Shown: piece by piece, positions 31,754 to 62,435 of the stretch
How the letters are laid out: the number at the start of each line of letters is the position of its first letter
How positions within the stretch are numbered: position 1 is the stretch's first letter
Assembly: GCA_026225395.1 (NCBI GenBank)
Contig: JAMFSR010000019.1
Span: 62,001 to 126,000 of the forward strand
DNA: 64,000 nt
Direction of reading: 5' to 3'
Source: Granulicella sapmiensis
GTDB taxonomy: Bacteria; Acidobacteriota; Terriglobia; Terriglobales; Acidobacteriaceae
Program-made: the position numbers and the translations under genes
Notes under the pieces: generated by a model
Seen by the model: the letters and a program-made list of their open reading frames with translations, nothing else
Told to the model about the DNA's origin: nothing
Database searches by the model: none

Positions 31754-31819
31754 AGTTAATTGGGTTGATTCATCAATAGGAAGCTAGAAGAGTGGCCAGA
31801 CGGCCTGTATAATTGAAAC

Positions 31820-31879
31820 AACACACCCGCCACGCCTCTAGCCTTTTAGGCTATGCGCCACTTGGCGGGTTTTCCTTTT
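31820..31879 (+). ncRNA. Candidate abiF-type structured RNA upstream of the Abi_2 gene
   Basis: A perfect -10 TATAAT (31808-31813) predicts a start near 31820; the -35 is weak. The RNA folds into an outer 8-bp stem ACCCGCCA/TGGCGGGT (31825-31832 with 31863-31870), an inner CGC/GCG helix, and an apical TAGCCT-TTT-AGGCTA hairpin (31839-31853), with a one-sided CCACT bulge. It ends in TTTTCCTTTT directly before the Abi_2 ATG, so it looks like an intrinsic terminator as well. Structured RNAs in just this position are known for AbiF-type genes; identity with that class is inferred. Confidence 0.6.
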
Positions 31880-32779
31880 ATGCGGTATGCCAAACCAGCT
31901 TTGACGTTCGCGGATCAGGTAGCCCTGCTTCAGGCAAGGGGACTGATCGTAGAGAACCACGCTTACGCGGAGGAGGTGCTGAGCCACATCAGCTATTACC
32001 GGCTGAGCGCCTATTTTCGGCCTTTTAGGCAGGTTGGAACCGAACGCTTCGCCGGCGCCAGCTTCGCCGATGTGTTGGCACTCTATAAGTTCGATAAGGA
32101 TCTGCGTCTGCTTGTGAGCGACGCTCTGGAGATCATCGAAGTTCACTTTAGAACCAGGATTACGTATCACCTGGCCTTGCGCGGTGGTGCCTTTGCGTAT
32201 GCCGACCCCGTTTACTTTGTCCCAACATTCGACCATCAAGCATTTCTTACGCAGATAAGAGATCTCGAAAAGAAGCCCGCGGATAAATTTGTTGCCCACT
32301 TTAGAGGGAAATACTCGCAAGAAGCGTATCTGCCTATCTGGATGGCAACGGAACTCATGTCTTTTGGGTTCATCTCGCATATTTATAAAGCTCTTACGCT
32401 CGACCTTCAGAGGGAGGTTGCGGATTCTATTGGCGTTCATCAATCGGTGCTCAGGACGTGGCTTCATACTCTTTCCTACGTGAGGAACATTTGTGCGCAT
32501 CACGGTCGCCTCTGGAATCGTGAACTGGCCATTTCACCCAAGTTTCCAAATAAGCCTGATCGTTGGCCTTACCTTGGGGTTGATCCCAAGCGTATGTATG
32601 GAGTTATCGTTCTCATCTGTGACCTTTTGGAGAAGATCAATGTATCTACCAAATGCAGACATGCGTTGCGAGATCAACTTGCATCGGCAAACCAGATGCA
32701 GCTCGCGGGTATGTGGGTGCCAAAAAGCTGGATGACCTACGCTCCATGGACGGCAATGCAGAAAAAACAGGGGCTATAA
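31880..32779 (+). CDS. Abi_2 family (AbiD/AbiF-like) abortive infection protein
   Basis: 299 residues. The Abi_2 pattern is clear: LTFADQVALLQARGL, SHISYYRLSAYFRPFRQ, and a HEPN-type R-x4-H motif in VRNICAHHGRLWNR (R202, N203, H207) expected to cleave RNA. Known relatives protect against phage or act as RNA-regulated toxins. Codon use is less GC-rich than in flanking genes, suggesting transfer. The ATG at 31880 directly follows the U-rich end of the upstream RNA, so no normal ribosome site is free unless the RNA is read through. The end overlaps the upstream edge of ispE. Confidence 0.88.
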   Translation: MRYAKPALTFADQVALLQARGLIVENHAYAEEVLSHISYYRLSAYFRPFRQVGTERFAGASFADVLALYKFDKDLRLLVSDALEIIEVHFRTRITYHLALRGGAFAYADPVYFVPTFDHQAFLTQIRDLEKKPADKFVAHFRGKYSQEAYLPIWMATELMSFGFISHIYKALTLDLQREVADSIGVHQSVLRTWLHTLSYVRNICAHHGRLWNRELAISPKFPNKPDRWPYLGVDPKRMYGVIVLICDLLEKINVSTKCRHALRDQLASANQMQLAGMWVPKSWMTYAPWTAMQKKQGL

Positions 32780-32781
32780 CT

Positions 32782-33831
32782 TTGTCCACACGTGTTAAGT
32801 CGTTTGCAAAGATCAACCTGGGGCTGGTGGTGGGGCCGGTGCGGGTGGACGGGTTCCATGGCCTGACGACCATGTACCAGACAGTTGCGCTGCATGATTT
32901 TGTGACCGTTGAGGCGCGTGAAGCGGCGGAGACGCGGATCGTGCTGACGGCGGATCATTCAGGCGTCCCACGGACCGAGACCGGCGATGCGGAGAAGAAT
33001 ACGGCGTTTGCAATGGTCGCCGGGGCGCTCGAGCGGATGGGGCTGACTGCTGAGGTGGCGATTCATATCGAGAAAAAACTGCCGGTGCAGGGCGGCGTGG
33101 GGGCTGGATCGGCGAACGCGGTCGCGGCGCTGCTGGGGCTGGAGCGGGAGCTGGGCAAGGCTTTGCCGGGTGCGGAGCGGTTGCAGCTGGCAGCGGAGGT
33201 GGGGTCGGATGTGCCGCTGTTTTTGATCGGCGGAACGGTTTTGGGCCTCGGACGTGGCGAAGAGGTGTATCCGCTGCCGGAATTGCCGGCGATGCCATGT
33301 GTCATGGCGATTCCGAGCGTTGGGGTGTCGACGAAGCTTGCATTTCAGGCGCTGGACGCCCAAATGGCGGCCTCCGCGTTGACTTTTCCACATGCAGGCG
33401 ATAGACTAAGTGAGTTGAGCCGCGTTCTGGCAGCCGTCTGGAGTAGGGATGGCGCTGAATCTGGCCTCTCCGGTGTCAACCGCAGGACGGTTGACCTGGC
33501 CGAGATAACGGGGTCCCCAGCCAACTTGTTGGATGGGGTGTCTAATCCTCTTCTCGCGCTTGTCCGCACCGGGATCGAAAACGACTTCGAAGAAGTTGCG
33601 TTTTCACAGCATCCCTCCTTGCGTTCAACCAAGCGTGAATTAGTGGGTAGTGATCCCGGCGGTGCGGTTTTTGCGTGCCTATCTGGATCGGGTTCGGCGT
33701 TGTTTGGGCTTTATGCCAGCCAAACGGACGCACGCGCTGCTCAACAACGTGTTCTGGAAGCCGGAACGCAGGCGATTCTCACAGAGACCCTGCCAAGATC
33801 GGCGTACTGGGATACGATGTTCGCAGAGTAG
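32782..33831 (+). CDS. ispE: 4-diphosphocytidyl-2-C-methyl-D-erythritol kinase
   Basis: GHMP kinase of the MEP isoprenoid pathway; phosphorylates the 2-OH of CDP-ME. Typical start STRVKSFAKINLGLVVG, the ATP-binding loop KLPVQGGVGAGSANAVAALL and the late SGSGSALFGL. Length (349) is a little above average, with a less conserved 210-290 region. The TTG at 32782 is chosen because homology begins there and AGGGG lies about 10 nt upstream; an in-frame ATG at 32746 inside the Abi_2 gene is the alternative. It starts 2 nt after the Abi_2 stop. Confidence 0.9.
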   Translation: MSTRVKSFAKINLGLVVGPVRVDGFHGLTTMYQTVALHDFVTVEAREAAETRIVLTADHSGVPRTETGDAEKNTAFAMVAGALERMGLTAEVAIHIEKKLPVQGGVGAGSANAVAALLGLERELGKALPGAERLQLAAEVGSDVPLFLIGGTVLGLGRGEEVYPLPELPAMPCVMAIPSVGVSTKLAFQALDAQMAASALTFPHAGDRLSELSRVLAAVWSRDGAESGLSGVNRRTVDLAEITGSPANLLDGVSNPLLALVRTGIENDFEEVAFSQHPSLRSTKRELVGSDPGGAVFACLSGSGSALFGLYASQTDARAAQQRVLEAGTQAILTETLPRSAYWDTMFAE

Positions 33832-57731: not shown

Positions 57732-60362
57732 TTAGAAAGCCGGAACCCCTTCTTCGACGACGAGGTCGTCTACGGCGATGTTGAGGGCCAGGCCCAGCTT
57801 GCGAAAGCCTTCGCGCCATTCAGGCGACCAATAGCGTCTCTCACTTGTGCTGTAGCTTGCGTCCACGGCAGCGCTGCGGCGGAGCAGGTCGTTCCAGATG
57901 TTCTGAGCCTGCCAGAGGTTGAACTCCACGGGCAGCGTGCGCAGGCTTTCGGCCAGGCCCACCGTCTCGTTCAGGACGTTGATGTTGGGCTGGAGCACGG
58001 GCTGCAGTGCCAGCGTTTGCTGGGCCTGGTTGTGCTGGATGCCCATCGACTCTTCAAGTCGCACCATGGCTCGTTTCATGCGCTTGTCGGCGGTGAAGCT
58101 GAGCAGCGGAGCGTCGAGAGCGACGTTGTCGATCTCCGCACGACGGAGCAGCCGGGCCACTTCGGCAGTGTCGTAGACGTCGGATTCAAGAGCACGGCGC
58201 AGTCCGGCGTTGATGGCAAAGCCGGCCGTGAGAGCGAGCGCGGGTGGTGTGGCTATGCTGGTCTCAGACAGAAAATGCAGCAGTGTAGCGTGCTCTTCGT
58301 AGATGCGGATGAGCGAGCTCTCTACTTCAGAGAGTGTCTGGTCGAGGATGTTCTTGAGGATGCGGTGCTGCTCGTCGGCGAAGAGCGAAGTGAGCGAGTA
58401 GAGCGTGCCGCCGAAGAACGCATCGATGAGACGGATGAGGTCAGGAAGATTGGCGCGGCGGATGGCGGTGCGAGCGTCTTCCTGGAACACGGCCCAGGCA
58501 AGTTCATCCTCGGGCGTGTAGCGTTTTACCGCGGCGGAGAGGTTCTGGTCGCCTAGGTGGAGCACCGCGAAGCAGATCTCCTCGGTCTCTTCGGTGATGC
58601 GGGAGCGAAGAGCGGCGCAGCCCAGGGCAACACGTCCGCGTCCGGAGGTGAGCAGCTCGTAGCTGTGACGGTTGACGTCGAAGCAGAAGAGATCGCCGGA
58701 CTCCGCCGAGGTGCGGAACATGGAGCTGATGGCGTAATGCGCACCCACATGCTCGAGGTCGAGTCTGGCGCCGGTAACGAAGCGGCGATAAACCTCGGCG
58801 CCGTCGCCGATGTCCGGCGCGTTGGACTTAGCCTGCGAGAGCAGCGCCAGAAAGTCGGTTTCGAGTGTGGCGGCTGCTTTGCCGAAGAGGTTCTGCGCGA
58901 GCTGGATGACACGGCCGGCGTACGCGATGATCTGCACGGTCTCGATGCCGGAAATCTCGTCGAAGAACCAGCCGCAGGAGGTGTACATGAGCTGCGTGTG
59001 GCGTTCGAGCTCAAGCAGCTCCAGCACGATCACGCGTTCTTCGGTGCTGAGTTCATGGGTGGCGTGCGTTGCGAGGAAGCGGTCGATGTTGGCCGGCGTT
59101 CGGTTGAGTACGACCTGGATGTAGGCATCGCGTGCTGCCCATAGATCTTTGAGCAGCCCCTTGGCGACGGTTTCAGCCAGCGGCGCGGTGCGGTCGCGGA
59201 GCAGGTCGAGCGAGGCACGCAGCGGACCGCGCCACGCCTGGTTCCATCCCGGCTTGCCGCCATTGCAGCCGCAGTCCGAGCGCCAGCGCTCGACGCCGTG
59301 AACGCAGCTCCAGGAGCTGTCGTCGACGACTTCGGCTTCGTATTGCGGAGGGAACTTTGCCAGGAACTCGCCGTAGTTGGTCAAAGTGGCGAGCTGATTT
59401 TCTTCGATCCAGTGCATGGCGTAGCTGAGGGCCATTTCGCCGTGCTTGTGGTGGTGGCCGTAGCTTTCTCCGTCGGTCGCGACGTGAGCGAGTTGCGGCT
59501 CGGTGGAATCTGCTTTCAGGCCGGCGACGAGGCGGCGGCCGAAGTTTTCGCCGGAGTTCAGCAGGCCTTCAAAGGCGATGGCGCGGGAACCTGGGCCGTC
59601 GTAGAAGAAGACGTCGATGGAGCGGCCTTTGTCGAGGCTGACCTTGTAGGGGTGGGTGGGGTCGACGGTGGCGTTGGTGGTCTCCATCCAGTCCAGTTCA
59701 GAGGCTGAAGCGTCCTTCGAGGACTCGGCAACCGGATTGGAAAGCTTGCGGACGCGCGCGCACTGGTGCGGCGCAAGAATGGTGTACTTGATGCCCTCCT
59801 GCGCGAGCAGGTCAAGCACGGAGCGGGAGACCGCGGTTTCTGCCAGCCACATGCCTTCGGGACGGCGGCCGAAGCGGTGCTCGAAATCGGCGATGCCCCA
59901 GCGGATCTGCGTGCGTGCATCGCGCTCGGAGGCCAGCGGCATGATGATGTGGTTGTAGACCTGCGCCAGGGCGGAGCCGTGACCGGAGTAGCGCTCTGCC
60001 GAAGCGCGGTCGGCTTCTTGGATCATCCGGTAGGTGCGCGGGGCGAAGTCCTCCAGCCAGCTCAGCAGCGTGGGGCCGAAGTTAAAGCTCATGCGGGCGT
60101 AGTTGTTCAGGATCCGCGTGATTTTGCCGGCCTTGTTCTGGATGCGGGAGGCGCCATTGGGGGCGTAGCACTCGGAGGTAATGCGTTCATTCCAGTCGTG
60201 GTACGGCGCGGCTGAGTCCTGCACCTCAACGGTCTCCAGCCACGGATTTTCCCGTGGGGGCTGGTAGAAGTGTCCGTGAACGCAGATGTAGCGCGTGGCC
60301 GGGGTAATGGCCTGGGCCGAAAGAACCGCGCGGCGTACACGAGAGAGGTGTTGAGTGCTCAT
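57732..60362 (-). CDS. GH57 family glycoside hydrolase with DUF3536 domain
   Basis: 876 residues. The N-terminal GH57 barrel has YICVHGHFYQPPRENPWLE (motif 1), FNFGPTLLSWLE (motif 2), GMWLAETAVSRSVLD with the expected nucleophile Glu (motif 3) and THVATDGESYGHHH-like HVATDGESYGHHHKHGE (motif 4). The long helical C-terminal half is DUF3536. Such proteins are thought to act on alpha-glucans, in keeping with glycogen metabolism genes in the window. The ATG at 60362 is chosen by homology. Confidence 0.87.
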   Translation of the reverse strand: MSTQHLSRVRRAVLSAQAITPATRYICVHGHFYQPPRENPWLETVEVQDSAAPYHDWNERITSECYAPNGASRIQNKAGKITRILNNYARMSFNFGPTLLSWLEDFAPRTYRMIQEADRASAERYSGHGSALAQVYNHIIMPLASERDARTQIRWGIADFEHRFGRRPEGMWLAETAVSRSVLDLLAQEGIKYTILAPHQCARVRKLSNPVAESSKDASASELDWMETTNATVDPTHPYKVSLDKGRSIDVFFYDGPGSRAIAFEGLLNSGENFGRRLVAGLKADSTEPQLAHVATDGESYGHHHKHGEMALSYAMHWIEENQLATLTNYGEFLAKFPPQYEAEVVDDSSWSCVHGVERWRSDCGCNGGKPGWNQAWRGPLRASLDLLRDRTAPLAETVAKGLLKDLWAARDAYIQVVLNRTPANIDRFLATHATHELSTEERVIVLELLELERHTQLMYTSCGWFFDEISGIETVQIIAYAGRVIQLAQNLFGKAAATLETDFLALLSQAKSNAPDIGDGAEVYRRFVTGARLDLEHVGAHYAISSMFRTSAESGDLFCFDVNRHSYELLTSGRGRVALGCAALRSRITEETEEICFAVLHLGDQNLSAAVKRYTPEDELAWAVFQEDARTAIRRANLPDLIRLIDAFFGGTLYSLTSLFADEQHRILKNILDQTLSEVESSLIRIYEEHATLLHFLSETSIATPPALALTAGFAINAGLRRALESDVYDTAEVARLLRRAEIDNVALDAPLLSFTADKRMKRAMVRLEESMGIQHNQAQQTLALQPVLQPNINVLNETVGLAESLRTLPVEFNLWQAQNIWNDLLRRSAAVDASYSTSERRYWSPEWREGFRKLGLALNIAVDDLVVEEGVPAF

Positions 60363-60437
60363 GGGGTTATTAAAGCATTGCAGCTCCGAGCTCACGGGAT
60401 GGGGAAGGTCTGCAAGCGGTTTTGTATAGTGGAGCGC

Positions 60438-62435
60438 ATGAACAGACGGTCGTTTTTAGCTGCTGGTGTGGGGATTGTAGGAACAAGGGCAGCGCGTGCC
60501 AGGATGCCGTCGTGGGCGGCGGTGTCAGCCGATGCGGGCGTAAGTGGACCGCCCATAAGCCTGCTCGAAAAAACGTTTGTGCCAATGGCAGCTTCTCTGC
60601 TGAGCGCGGATGCGTGGCGGCCGATACCAAAGTTCGCGGACCGTACCGCATGGATGGCCGTTCCACAGGATGTGCGCGATGTGCTGGTGCAGCGGGCCGA
60701 GGCGGCCAACAACGATGCCTGGCCCATCATGCTCGCGACCGAAGAGCTGGAGTACCAACGCAACGGCAACCGCACGCGCTTTGAGGCCATTACATTCGGC
60801 CGGCGTGGACGGCTATCGGATCTGGTGCTGGGCGAGTGCATCACGGGTGAAGGCAAGTATCTGGATCAGATTGCGAACGGCCTCTGGCTGATCTGCGAAG
60901 AAAGCTTCTGGGGCGTTCCCGCGCACCTCGGAGCGCAGAAAGCCGGCGTGGGATTGGCCGATGAGGCAGAGCCGGTCATCGAGCTATTTGGAGCCGAAAC
61001 GGCGGCAACGCTGGCGTGGGTGGTCTATCTGCTGGGCGACCGGCTGGGCAGCGTATCGAAGCTGCTGGTTTCACGCATCCAGATGGAAACGAAGCGGCGA
61101 ATTCTGGATGTGTACTTCGAGCGCAGCCAGTTTGGATGGATGGGCCTCGGTGGCGGCGGTCACGTAAACAACTGGAACCCGTGGATCAACTCGAACATAT
61201 TGACGGCGACAATGGTGCTGGAGCCGGATGCGCAGCAGCGCGCGCAACTGGTAGCGAAGGTCTGCAAGAGCGTGGATGTATTCCTGGCCGAGTACTCGCC
61301 GGACGCCGGTTGCGAAGAAGGGCCGAACTACTGGTCGCGCTCTGCGGCGAGTTTTTTCGACTGCTGTACAACGCTTGTCTCGGCACACGGAGGCAAGGGC
61401 GGTGCAGTGCTCACGCATCCGTTTACACGCGCAATGGGACATTACATTGCCGACGTCCACATCGCGAAGAACCTGTATGTGAACTACGGAGACGCGCATG
61501 TGGACTCGGCTCCGGAGCCGGAGGTTGTGTACGCGTACGGCAAGGCGTGTGGGGATGCGAAGCTGGCGGAGTTCGGCGCGTTCGATGCCGCGTGGCGTGG
61601 GTCAGCCGCCGAAGGAGCGGTGCTACGTGGAACATTTTCCAATGGCGGTGGCCCGGTTTCGCTGTCGCGCGAGTTGGCGAAGGTGTTTGCCGCGGCTCCG
61701 ATACGCGTGGCGCCGAAGCGCGATGCGCTGGTCCGAGACGCATGGTATCCGCGGCTGGGACTGATGACCGCGCGACAGACGGAAGGCTCAAGCGACGGGT
61801 TTTATGTGGCATTGCAGGCGGCGAGCAACGGCCGCTCGCATGGGCACAACGACTCCGGAAGCTTCATCGTGTTCCAGGGGGGCGAGCCGGTGTTCATCGA
61901 CGTAGGCGTGGAGGCGTACACCGCGAAGACGTTCAGCAAAGAGCGCTACGACATCTGGACAATGCAGTCCGCGTTCCACAACTTGCCGACCATCGGCGGC
62001 GTGATGCAACATGATGGCGATGCCTTCCAGGCCAGCGAAGTGAAGTACGAGAAGACTGACGCGCGGACGACCGTACGCACGAATCTGGCCACAGCGTATC
62101 CGAAGCAGGCGGGTGTGAAGCGGTGGATGCGGACGGTGGTGCTGGATCGCGCATCGCGTCGCGTAGAAATTGAAGAAGAGTTCGCATTGGCAAACACTGT
62201 ACCTGTGGAGCTTTCGTTGATGACGGCGCGGGAGCCGTCGCTTACCAGCGGGAGCGTTAAAGTCGGCGGCGCAGTGCTGGCGTTCGATGCAACGCAGCTA
62301 ACGGCGACGAGCGAGAAGATTGTGCTCACGGATGCCTCGCTGCGACATTGTTGGGGCGAGGCCGTGTGGCGGGTGAAGCTGACGTCGAAAGCGGTGGAGG
62401 GTGGGAGTTGGAAGATGATGCTCACCGCAGGGTAA
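60438..62435 (+). CDS. Tat-exported heparinase II/III-like polysaccharide lyase
   Basis: 665 residues. A twin-arginine signal (MNRRSFLAAGVGIVG) leads to an (alpha/alpha) toroid domain (about 40-400, WMGLGGGGHVNNWNPWINSN, CEEGPNYWSRSA) and a beta-sandwich domain with SHGHNDSGSFIVFQGGEPVF and SAFHNLPTIGGVMQ, typical of heparinase II/III-type lyases (PL15/17/21-like) for uronic-acid polymers. GGAG sits 3 nt before the ATG. It is divergent from the GH57 gene. Confidence 0.87.
   Translation: MNRRSFLAAGVGIVGTRAARARMPSWAAVSADAGVSGPPISLLEKTFVPMAASLLSADAWRPIPKFADRTAWMAVPQDVRDVLVQRAEAANNDAWPIMLATEELEYQRNGNRTRFEAITFGRRGRLSDLVLGECITGEGKYLDQIANGLWLICEESFWGVPAHLGAQKAGVGLADEAEPVIELFGAETAATLAWVVYLLGDRLGSVSKLLVSRIQMETKRRILDVYFERSQFGWMGLGGGGHVNNWNPWINSNILTATMVLEPDAQQRAQLVAKVCKSVDVFLAEYSPDAGCEEGPNYWSRSAASFFDCCTTLVSAHGGKGGAVLTHPFTRAMGHYIADVHIAKNLYVNYGDAHVDSAPEPEVVYAYGKACGDAKLAEFGAFDAAWRGSAAEGAVLRGTFSNGGGPVSLSRELAKVFAAAPIRVAPKRDALVRDAWYPRLGLMTARQTEGSSDGFYVALQAASNGRSHGHNDSGSFIVFQGGEPVFIDVGVEAYTAKTFSKERYDIWTMQSAFHNLPTIGGVMQHDGDAFQASEVKYEKTDARTTVRTNLATAYPKQAGVKRWMRTVVLDRASRRVEIEEEFALANTVPVELSLMTAREPSLTSGSVKVGGAVLAFDATQLTATSEKIVLTDASLRHCWGEAVWRVKLTSKAVEGGSWKMMLTAG

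What the first reader, a model, noticed from the sequence alone, without database searches (positions are those of the whole stretch)
31801..32779. AbiF-like HEPN protein with its own upstream structured RNA
A perfect TATAAT, a 60-nt RNA with an 8-bp outer stem and apical hairpin, a U-rich end and then the Abi_2 ATG directly follow one another. Position and shape match the RNA elements known upstream of AbiF-type genes, which are thought to restrain or guide the HEPN RNase and have been discussed as relatives of Cas13 ancestors. The gene is less GC-rich than its neighbours and lies between unrelated operons, as expected for a mobile defence unit.
Basis: partly seen in the sequence, partly recalled or inferred. 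Interest (0 to 1): 0.78.

Follow-up and report, generated by a model that had tools for sequence, protein, structure and literature searches.

The report
AbiF toxin with its antitoxin RNA
A bacterium carries a known kind of self-poisoning RNA-cutting enzyme together with the small folded RNA that in relatives keeps it quiet; the pair itself is ordinary, but some related genomes keep the RNA without the enzyme, which hints that the RNA may be useful on its own.

Summary
Window 31880-32779 encodes a full-length Abi_2/AbiF protein (PF07751, E 1.6e-55; solved relative 8vz6, E 9.5e-43) with the HEPN motif RNICAH. Directly upstream, 31822-31876 is an abiF-family RNA. Rfam's model finds it only below its cut-off (26.2 bits against 37). 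A covariance model built from ten homologous loci without the window finds it at 50.7 bits, E 2e-14. Both stems covary (26 sequences). This is a new member of a described kind: AbiF held down by a cognate RNA, as in type III toxin-antitoxin systems (shown for C. difficile, PMC12373285). Restraint is the likely role of the RNA; nothing here supports guiding. The outer stem ends 9 nt before the start codon, so one hairpin may act as antitoxin, terminator and translation lock (inference). The more surprising result lies outside the window: of 11 strong RNA loci in two sampled genome sets, 3 have no AbiF gene beside them and no convincing one in the genome, and one more RNA is encoded on the opposite strand, converging on its toxin gene.

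The parts
31808..31813 (+). -10 element TATAAT; predicted transcript start near 31820; -35 weak
   Evidence: sequence; no full consensus promoter
31822..31876 (+). abiF-family RNA (predicted antitoxin), core with U-rich end
   Evidence: RF03085 26.2 bits, below cut-off; model R3 built without the window 50.7 bits, E 2e-14; fold z -4.91
31825..31832 (+). 5' arm of outer stem (pairs with 31863-31870)
   Evidence: covariation in this helix
31833..31835 (+). 5' arm of inner stem CGC (pairs with 31855-31857 GCG)
   Evidence: changes on both sides at all three pairs
31839..31853 (+). apical hairpin, 6 bp with 3-nt loop; longer than in the Rfam consensus
   Evidence: longer variants in Rhizobium, Ensifer, Agrobacterium and Actibacterium loci
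31863..31870 (+). 3' arm of outer stem; occupies the position of a ribosome-binding site, 9 nt before the start codon
31871..31879 (+). U-rich stretch UUUCCUUUU, terminator-like tail and whole remaining leader
31880..32779 (+). AbiF / Abi_2 HEPN protein, 299 aa
   Evidence: PF07751 E 1.6e-55 and PADLOC AbiD E 6.6e-72 (scanned with 9 extra residues from 31853); PDB 8vz6_A E 9.5e-43; no NCBIfam match at E 0.001
32483..32500 (+). HEPN catalytic motif R-N-I-C-A-H (aa 202-207)
   Evidence: aligned with RNSCCH of 8vz6
32782..33831 (+). neighbour ispE, TTG start 2 nt after the abiF stop
   Evidence: TIGR00154 E 1.8e-43; relatives whose start is printed have ATG there

Best explanation
A two-part AbiF module of the type III toxin-antitoxin kind. 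A promoter with TATAAT at 31808 makes a roughly 55-nt RNA from about 31820 to 31876. It folds into one abiF motif, binds the AbiF homodimer one RNA per monomer and blocks its HEPN RNase. Because the same hairpin ends in a U-rich tail and its 3' arm lies 9 nt before the AbiF start codon, I infer that it also ends most transcripts and hides the start region of those that read through, so RNA is made in excess over toxin. When the balance breaks (phage takeover of transcription is the usual idea, recalled), freed AbiF cuts RNA and stops growth. Shown here: family, motif, position, covariation. Shown by others in relatives: toxicity, RNA-protein binding, neutralisation in trans. Inferred: transcript ends, translation lock, trigger, phage defence in this organism.
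For: Protein: PF07751 E 1.6e-55, PADLOC AbiD E 6.6e-72, 8vz6 E 9.5e-43 with aligned RNxxxH. RNA: leave-window-out model E 2e-14, next best in the window 17.1 bits; RF03085 is sub-threshold, but its single match in the 5-Mb genome at E up to 10 lies at AbiF. Covariation: 99.6% of 260 cells paired, 29 double-sided cells against a shuffle mean of 6.1, score 0.388 against 0.113, every slid version under 47% paired; same direction on 11 rows not fitted to the structure. In a 398-genome family scan 8 of the 10 best RNA loci lie beside AbiF. Published: RCd22 neutralises AbiFCd in cis and trans and binds it; stem-breaking changes abolish this, compensated ones do not; R202/H207 are needed for toxicity (PMC12373285, Results and Discussion read).
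Against: No expression data. Rfam's own cut-off is not met, and at the loose limit RF03085 also rings in 6 of 14 control genomes (none over the cut-off), so that weak match alone would prove nothing. The -35 element is weak. RCd22 has two motifs and a separate terminator; here there is one motif, so dose and stoichiometry may differ. ispE starts 2 nt after abiF, so termination cannot be complete unless ispE has another promoter. The C. difficile authors call anti-phage activity challenging to demonstrate.
Confidence: 0.85

Rival explanations
1. The hairpin acts only in cis, as a leader that attenuates transcription or translation of abiF, and does not bind the protein.
For: U-rich tail and 9-nt spacing to ATG 31880; predicted unpaired probability 0.0 at 31864-31869.
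Against: The core and both stems are shared with loci whose spacing is tens of nt. One RNA (G562) is encoded on the opposite strand beyond the toxin's 3' end, and three RNAs exist without the gene, so a leader role is unlikely to be the whole story.
Confidence: 0.1
2. The RNA is a guide that directs AbiF to target transcripts, as crRNA does for Cas13.
For: AbiD/F forms a clade with the HEPN domains of the ancestral Cas13an (PMC12165695, passages read).
Against: No spacer-like stretch: after the stem only 9 nt remain before the ATG. In the C. difficile work gel shifts showed no RNA-RNA complex with RCd22 except one weak one (PMC12373285).
Confidence: 0.03
3. The hairpin is an ordinary rho-independent terminator (of the MBOAT operon) that happens to resemble abiF RNA.
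For: GC-rich stem with a U tail; plain short hairpins reach 21-30 bits with my models in several genomes.
Against: 50.7 bits with a model that never saw the window, covering the conserved core as well as the stem; conserved position and covariation.
Confidence: 0.02

Closest known systems
RCd22-AbiFCd of Clostridioides difficile prophage phi027 (PMC12373285)
   Same: Abi_2 protein with RNxxxH, abiF RNA directly upstream in the same direction, RNA expected to be both leader and antitoxin
   Different: RCd22 has two motifs, a separate terminator, an RBS of its own and 168 nt from transcript start to ATG; the window has one motif and 9 nt between stem and ATG
PbAbiF-AbiFr complex, PDB 8vz6 (known to me from PMC12373285 and passages of the review PMC12737573; primary paper not held)
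   Same: sequence match over query residues 3-290, E 9.5e-43, catalytic motif aligned; one RNA per monomer would fit the single motif here
Rfam RF03085 abiF RNA
   Same: outer stem, GCCUCU core, inner 3-bp stem
   Different: 15 nt in the apical part where the model has 7, and C-G in place of A-U in the inner stem; below the gathering score
ToxIN type III toxin-antitoxin (as described in PMC12373285)
   Same: RNA antitoxin co-transcribed ahead of an RNase toxin
   Different: different toxin and RNA structures, repeat array, hexameric assembly

Membership tests
Abi_2 / AbiD-F proteins (PF07751) | full-length profile match above cut-off | tested here: met
   188.7 bits against 25.6, profile positions 1-184 of 184
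Abi_2 / AbiD-F proteins (PF07751) | HEPN R-polar-xxx-H motif aligned with a characterised member | tested here: met
   RNICAH aligned with RNSCCH of 8vz6
abiF RNA (RF03085) | Rfam gathering score | tested here: not met
   26.2 bits against 37
abiF RNA (RF03085) | conserved core and two-stem structure with covariation among loci beside AbiF | tested here: met
   model without the window E 2e-14; pair counts
abiF RNA (RF03085) | position upstream of an abi_2 gene, same strand | tested here: met
Type III toxin-antitoxin system | RNA antitoxin binds and neutralises the toxin protein | not testable with these tools
   shown for RCd22-AbiFCd (PMC12373285), not for this pair
Type III toxin-antitoxin system | antitoxin made of tandem repeats | tested here: not met
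   one motif at this locus
Cas13-like RNA-guided nuclease | variable guide segment joined to the conserved RNA | tested here: not met
   stem end to ATG is 9 nt; a guide on another transcript was not sought

The most novel reading that the evidence does not exclude
The abiF RNA can live as a free-standing genetic element. Some bacteria lack the AbiF toxin but keep its antitoxin RNA with its promoter region, because the RNA protects them from AbiF carried by incoming plasmids and phages or from a relative's AbiF. In the window's genus, G001 and G017 hold RNAs that share a 68-nt run without a difference while their upstream flanks differ by 19-30% and their downstream flanks do not align; in G987 the RNA is followed by a 9-codon stump of the toxin gene.
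Probability: 0.3. Interest if true: 0.65.

Novelty: new member of a known kind. Interest (0 to 1): 0.38.

Why it matters
It extends a recently understood toxin-RNA pair, the proposed ancestor of Cas13, to a lineage where Rfam's cut-off misses part of the RNAs, and gives a very compact form in which one hairpin may do three jobs. If the toxin-less RNAs are functional, they would be RNA counterparts of the orphan antitoxins described for protein systems, and would make RNA-only immunity against AbiF directly testable.

Tried and rejected
Rfam at gathering threshold gave no abiF hit in the window. The genome-contig scan gave two distant loci, the viral-contig scan one. Several hits of my first model in relatives are short plain hairpins without the core (L069, L070, L072, L076, and L086 in the window's own genome, 21.4-30.3 bits). 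Of the 15 genomes hit, the 5 weakest (G583, G672, G495, G754, G673; E 2e-6 to 6e-4) have no AbiF match in their loci and were set aside as chance; G583 is a 27-nt hit on a short contig. G206 (24.3 bits) is not among the Abi_2 matches and was set aside. A second match in the window at 61291-61358 (17.1 bits) does have a 7-bp outer stem and a T run but not the GCCUC core, and lies inside a 721-aa reading frame, 60270-62435; rejected. The second, weak Abi_2-like gene of this genome (C31, L004) has no match to the RNA model in its 3.4-kb locus. Rfam at E up to 2 did not find the RNA of G012 (L006), which my models find.

Rows left out of the pair counts: L032 (same RNA as L028); L019 (18.9 bits, cut by the E limits); L007, L008, L033, L035, L001, L002 (AbiF relatives with no model match) and L024 (12.9 bits). 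The counts therefore come from loci that already fit the model. A first test of the MBOAT neighbour used a query translated one base out of frame; it was repeated in frame. GC at third positions had the same slip for MBOAT and is not used. No protein structure prediction was run.

Full report
What is there. The window encodes, at 31880-32779, a 299-residue Abi_2 protein (PF07751, 188.7 bits, whole profile; PADLOC AbiD) whose only match among solved structures at E up to 1 is 8vz6, an Abi family protein, E 9.5e-43 over residues 3-290. The HEPN motif RNICAH lies at residues 202-207 and aligns with RNSCCH of 8vz6. PMC12373285 (Discussion read) says that the PbAbiF variant R210A+H215A is inactive and that R202 and H207 of AbiFCd align with these residues; that 8vz6 is the PbAbiF-RNA structure is stated in a figure legend of the review PMC12737573 (passages read).

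The RNA. Directly upstream, the + strand folds at -24.7 kcal/mol (z -4.91) into an 8-bp outer stem, a 3-bp inner stem and a 6-bp apical hairpin. Rfam's abiF model aligns end to end at 31826-31870 with 26.2 bits, under its gathering score of 37. In the whole 5-Mb genome it is the one match at E up to 10, itself at E 0.039; at that loose limit 6 of 14 control genomes also show a match, none over the cut-off, so this alone is weak. The apical part has 15 nt where the model has 7; Rhizobium, Ensifer, Agrobacterium and Actibacterium plasmid loci have still longer hairpins in the same place.

Independent test. I aligned ten RNAs from AbiF loci of other bacteria without the window, built a covariance model and searched the window: 50.7 bits, E 2e-14, the next best being 17.1 bits. 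Counting pairs on 26 aligned RNAs gave 99.6% of 260 cells paired, 6 of 10 pairs with changes on both sides, 29 such cells (shuffle mean 6.1, reached by 0 of 500), and under 47% paired for every slid register. On 11 MAFFT rows not fitted to the structure: 99.1% of 110 cells, 5 pairs, 7 cells, 0 of 500, though one measure, the number of further pair types, was reached by 61 of 500 shuffles. Searches use alignments fitted to the structure, which favours it. Pairs that never vary: 5 of 10, 4 of 10, 2 of 10.

Distribution. Of 28 genomes of the genus, 5 have a PF07751 match over the cut-off. The window protein finds the other four at 35-41% identity, one of them (G004) a partial match with a stop inside, and in none of these four does the gene lie next to ispE (positions). 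In the phylum sample PF07751 matches 5 of 396 genomes (4 over the cut-off) and RF03085 4 of 396 at E 0.1 (1 over the cut-off). The closest relatives I saw are still distant: 43.6% in G638, 46% over 221 residues in a Legionella plasmid record. This patchiness and the GC content fit horizontal gain. In G012 a homologue of the MBOAT protein (60% identity over 492 residues) is followed by ispE after 36 nt, with no abiF between; it is the only one of the 22 relatives' ispE loci tested with MBOAT in the fetched flank (some of those loci are cut short). In the window the abiF unit fills that gap, ending 2 nt before a TTG start of ispE. G012 is not a close strain, so this is a comparable site rather than a strict empty site.

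How it most likely works. In C. difficile the upstream RNA RCd22 represses abiF in cis, binds the AbiF protein, and neutralises it in trans; breaking stems abolishes this, compensated changes do not (PMC12373285, Results read). I apply this to the window by homology. The particular feature here is compactness: one motif, a U-rich end, and 9 nt between stem and ATG, so the 3' arm GGCGGG occupies the ribosome-binding position and is predicted paired. Spacings of 7, 8 and 13 nt occur in G616, G667 and G563; G012 has 19 and no start was found for G638. Thirteen plasmid homologues with the RNA range from 6 nt (Phyllobacterium) to 87 nt by annotated starts, most between 22 and 52 (my arithmetic). 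A translation lock is therefore plausible for the compact loci but is inference, and not a family-wide feature.

RNAs away from the toxin. A model from 19 RNAs matched 15 of 398 genomes of the family at E 0.001. The ten best (E up to 3.4e-8): seven lie upstream of AbiF on the same strand (window, G012, G563, G667, G793, G616, G638); in G562 the RNA is on the opposite strand beyond the 3' end of abiF, preceded by TTGACA, 17 nt and TATCTT; in G001 and G017 there is no AbiF within the 3-kb locus. A class scan (4 of 399, three of them already seen) added G987, whose RNA passes Rfam's cut-off at 44.8 bits and is followed by ATG and eight sense codons like the AbiF start, then a stop. PF07751 finds nothing in G001 and G987 at E up to 1 and only an E 0.066 match, on another contig, in G017; completeness is listed as 99, 97 and 100%. 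So 3 of these 11 strong RNA loci lack the toxin; G320 and G138, found with RF03085 in the phylum sample, both have it. The G001 and G017 RNAs share a 68-nt run without difference, against 81% identity over 112 nt and 70% over 141 nt upstream and no alignment downstream. Selection on the RNA explains this best, but recent transfer or recombination of the short stretch is not excluded, and G987 may be recent decay.

What is in print. Searches for 'abiF RNA' or RF03085 found three papers; none of the parts I read describes toxin-less abiF RNAs in bacteria. A cyanophage paper (PMC9964418, passages) reports an abiF RNA in lytic phage S-CREM1, and the passages name no AbiF protein gene. In one search no record whose name begins with Synechococcus was among the 83 phage records with an AbiF relative, though I did not check that S-CREM1 is in that collection. 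A search for orphan or solitary antitoxins with AbiF or type III systems was seen as a listing only. The Cell paper on AbiF and Cas13 and the original abiF RNA paper were not held, so prior notice there is possible.

Verdict. A sound observation and a correct identification of a known system, in a member that the standard library cut-off misses. The pair is not new; the free-standing RNAs deserve a follow-up.

Noticed in passing
L067 1501-1551 (G017) and L068 1501-1551, - strand (G001): abiF-type RNAs without an AbiF gene in the same genus, identical over 68 nt including the upstream stretch; further upstream both share sequence that looks like a decayed gene.
   Followed up: partly
L103 1501-1555, - strand (G987): abiF RNA above Rfam's cut-off followed by only a 9-codon stump of the AbiF reading frame; no PF07751 match in that genome.
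   Followed up: partly
L097 1501-1557, - strand (G562): abiF RNA encoded on the opposite strand, converging on the 3' end of an abiF gene, with a consensus-like promoter of its own.
   Followed up: partly
window 32777-32784: ispE (recalled as usually essential) starts with TTG 2 nt after the abiF stop; relatives have ATG and other upstream DNA, so its transcription may now depend on read-through of the abiF hairpin.
   Followed up: partly
L007 2496-2540 (- strand), L008 1429-1473, L033 930-986: A second hairpin type upstream of AbiF relatives (GGCCG outer stem, another core) that RF03085 (L007 and L008 scanned) and model R3 do not match; possibly another abiF RNA class.
   Followed up: no
L025 765-815 and 938-984: Two abiF-type motifs in tandem upstream of AbiF in a Synechococcus plasmid, with two different core types.
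   Followed up: no
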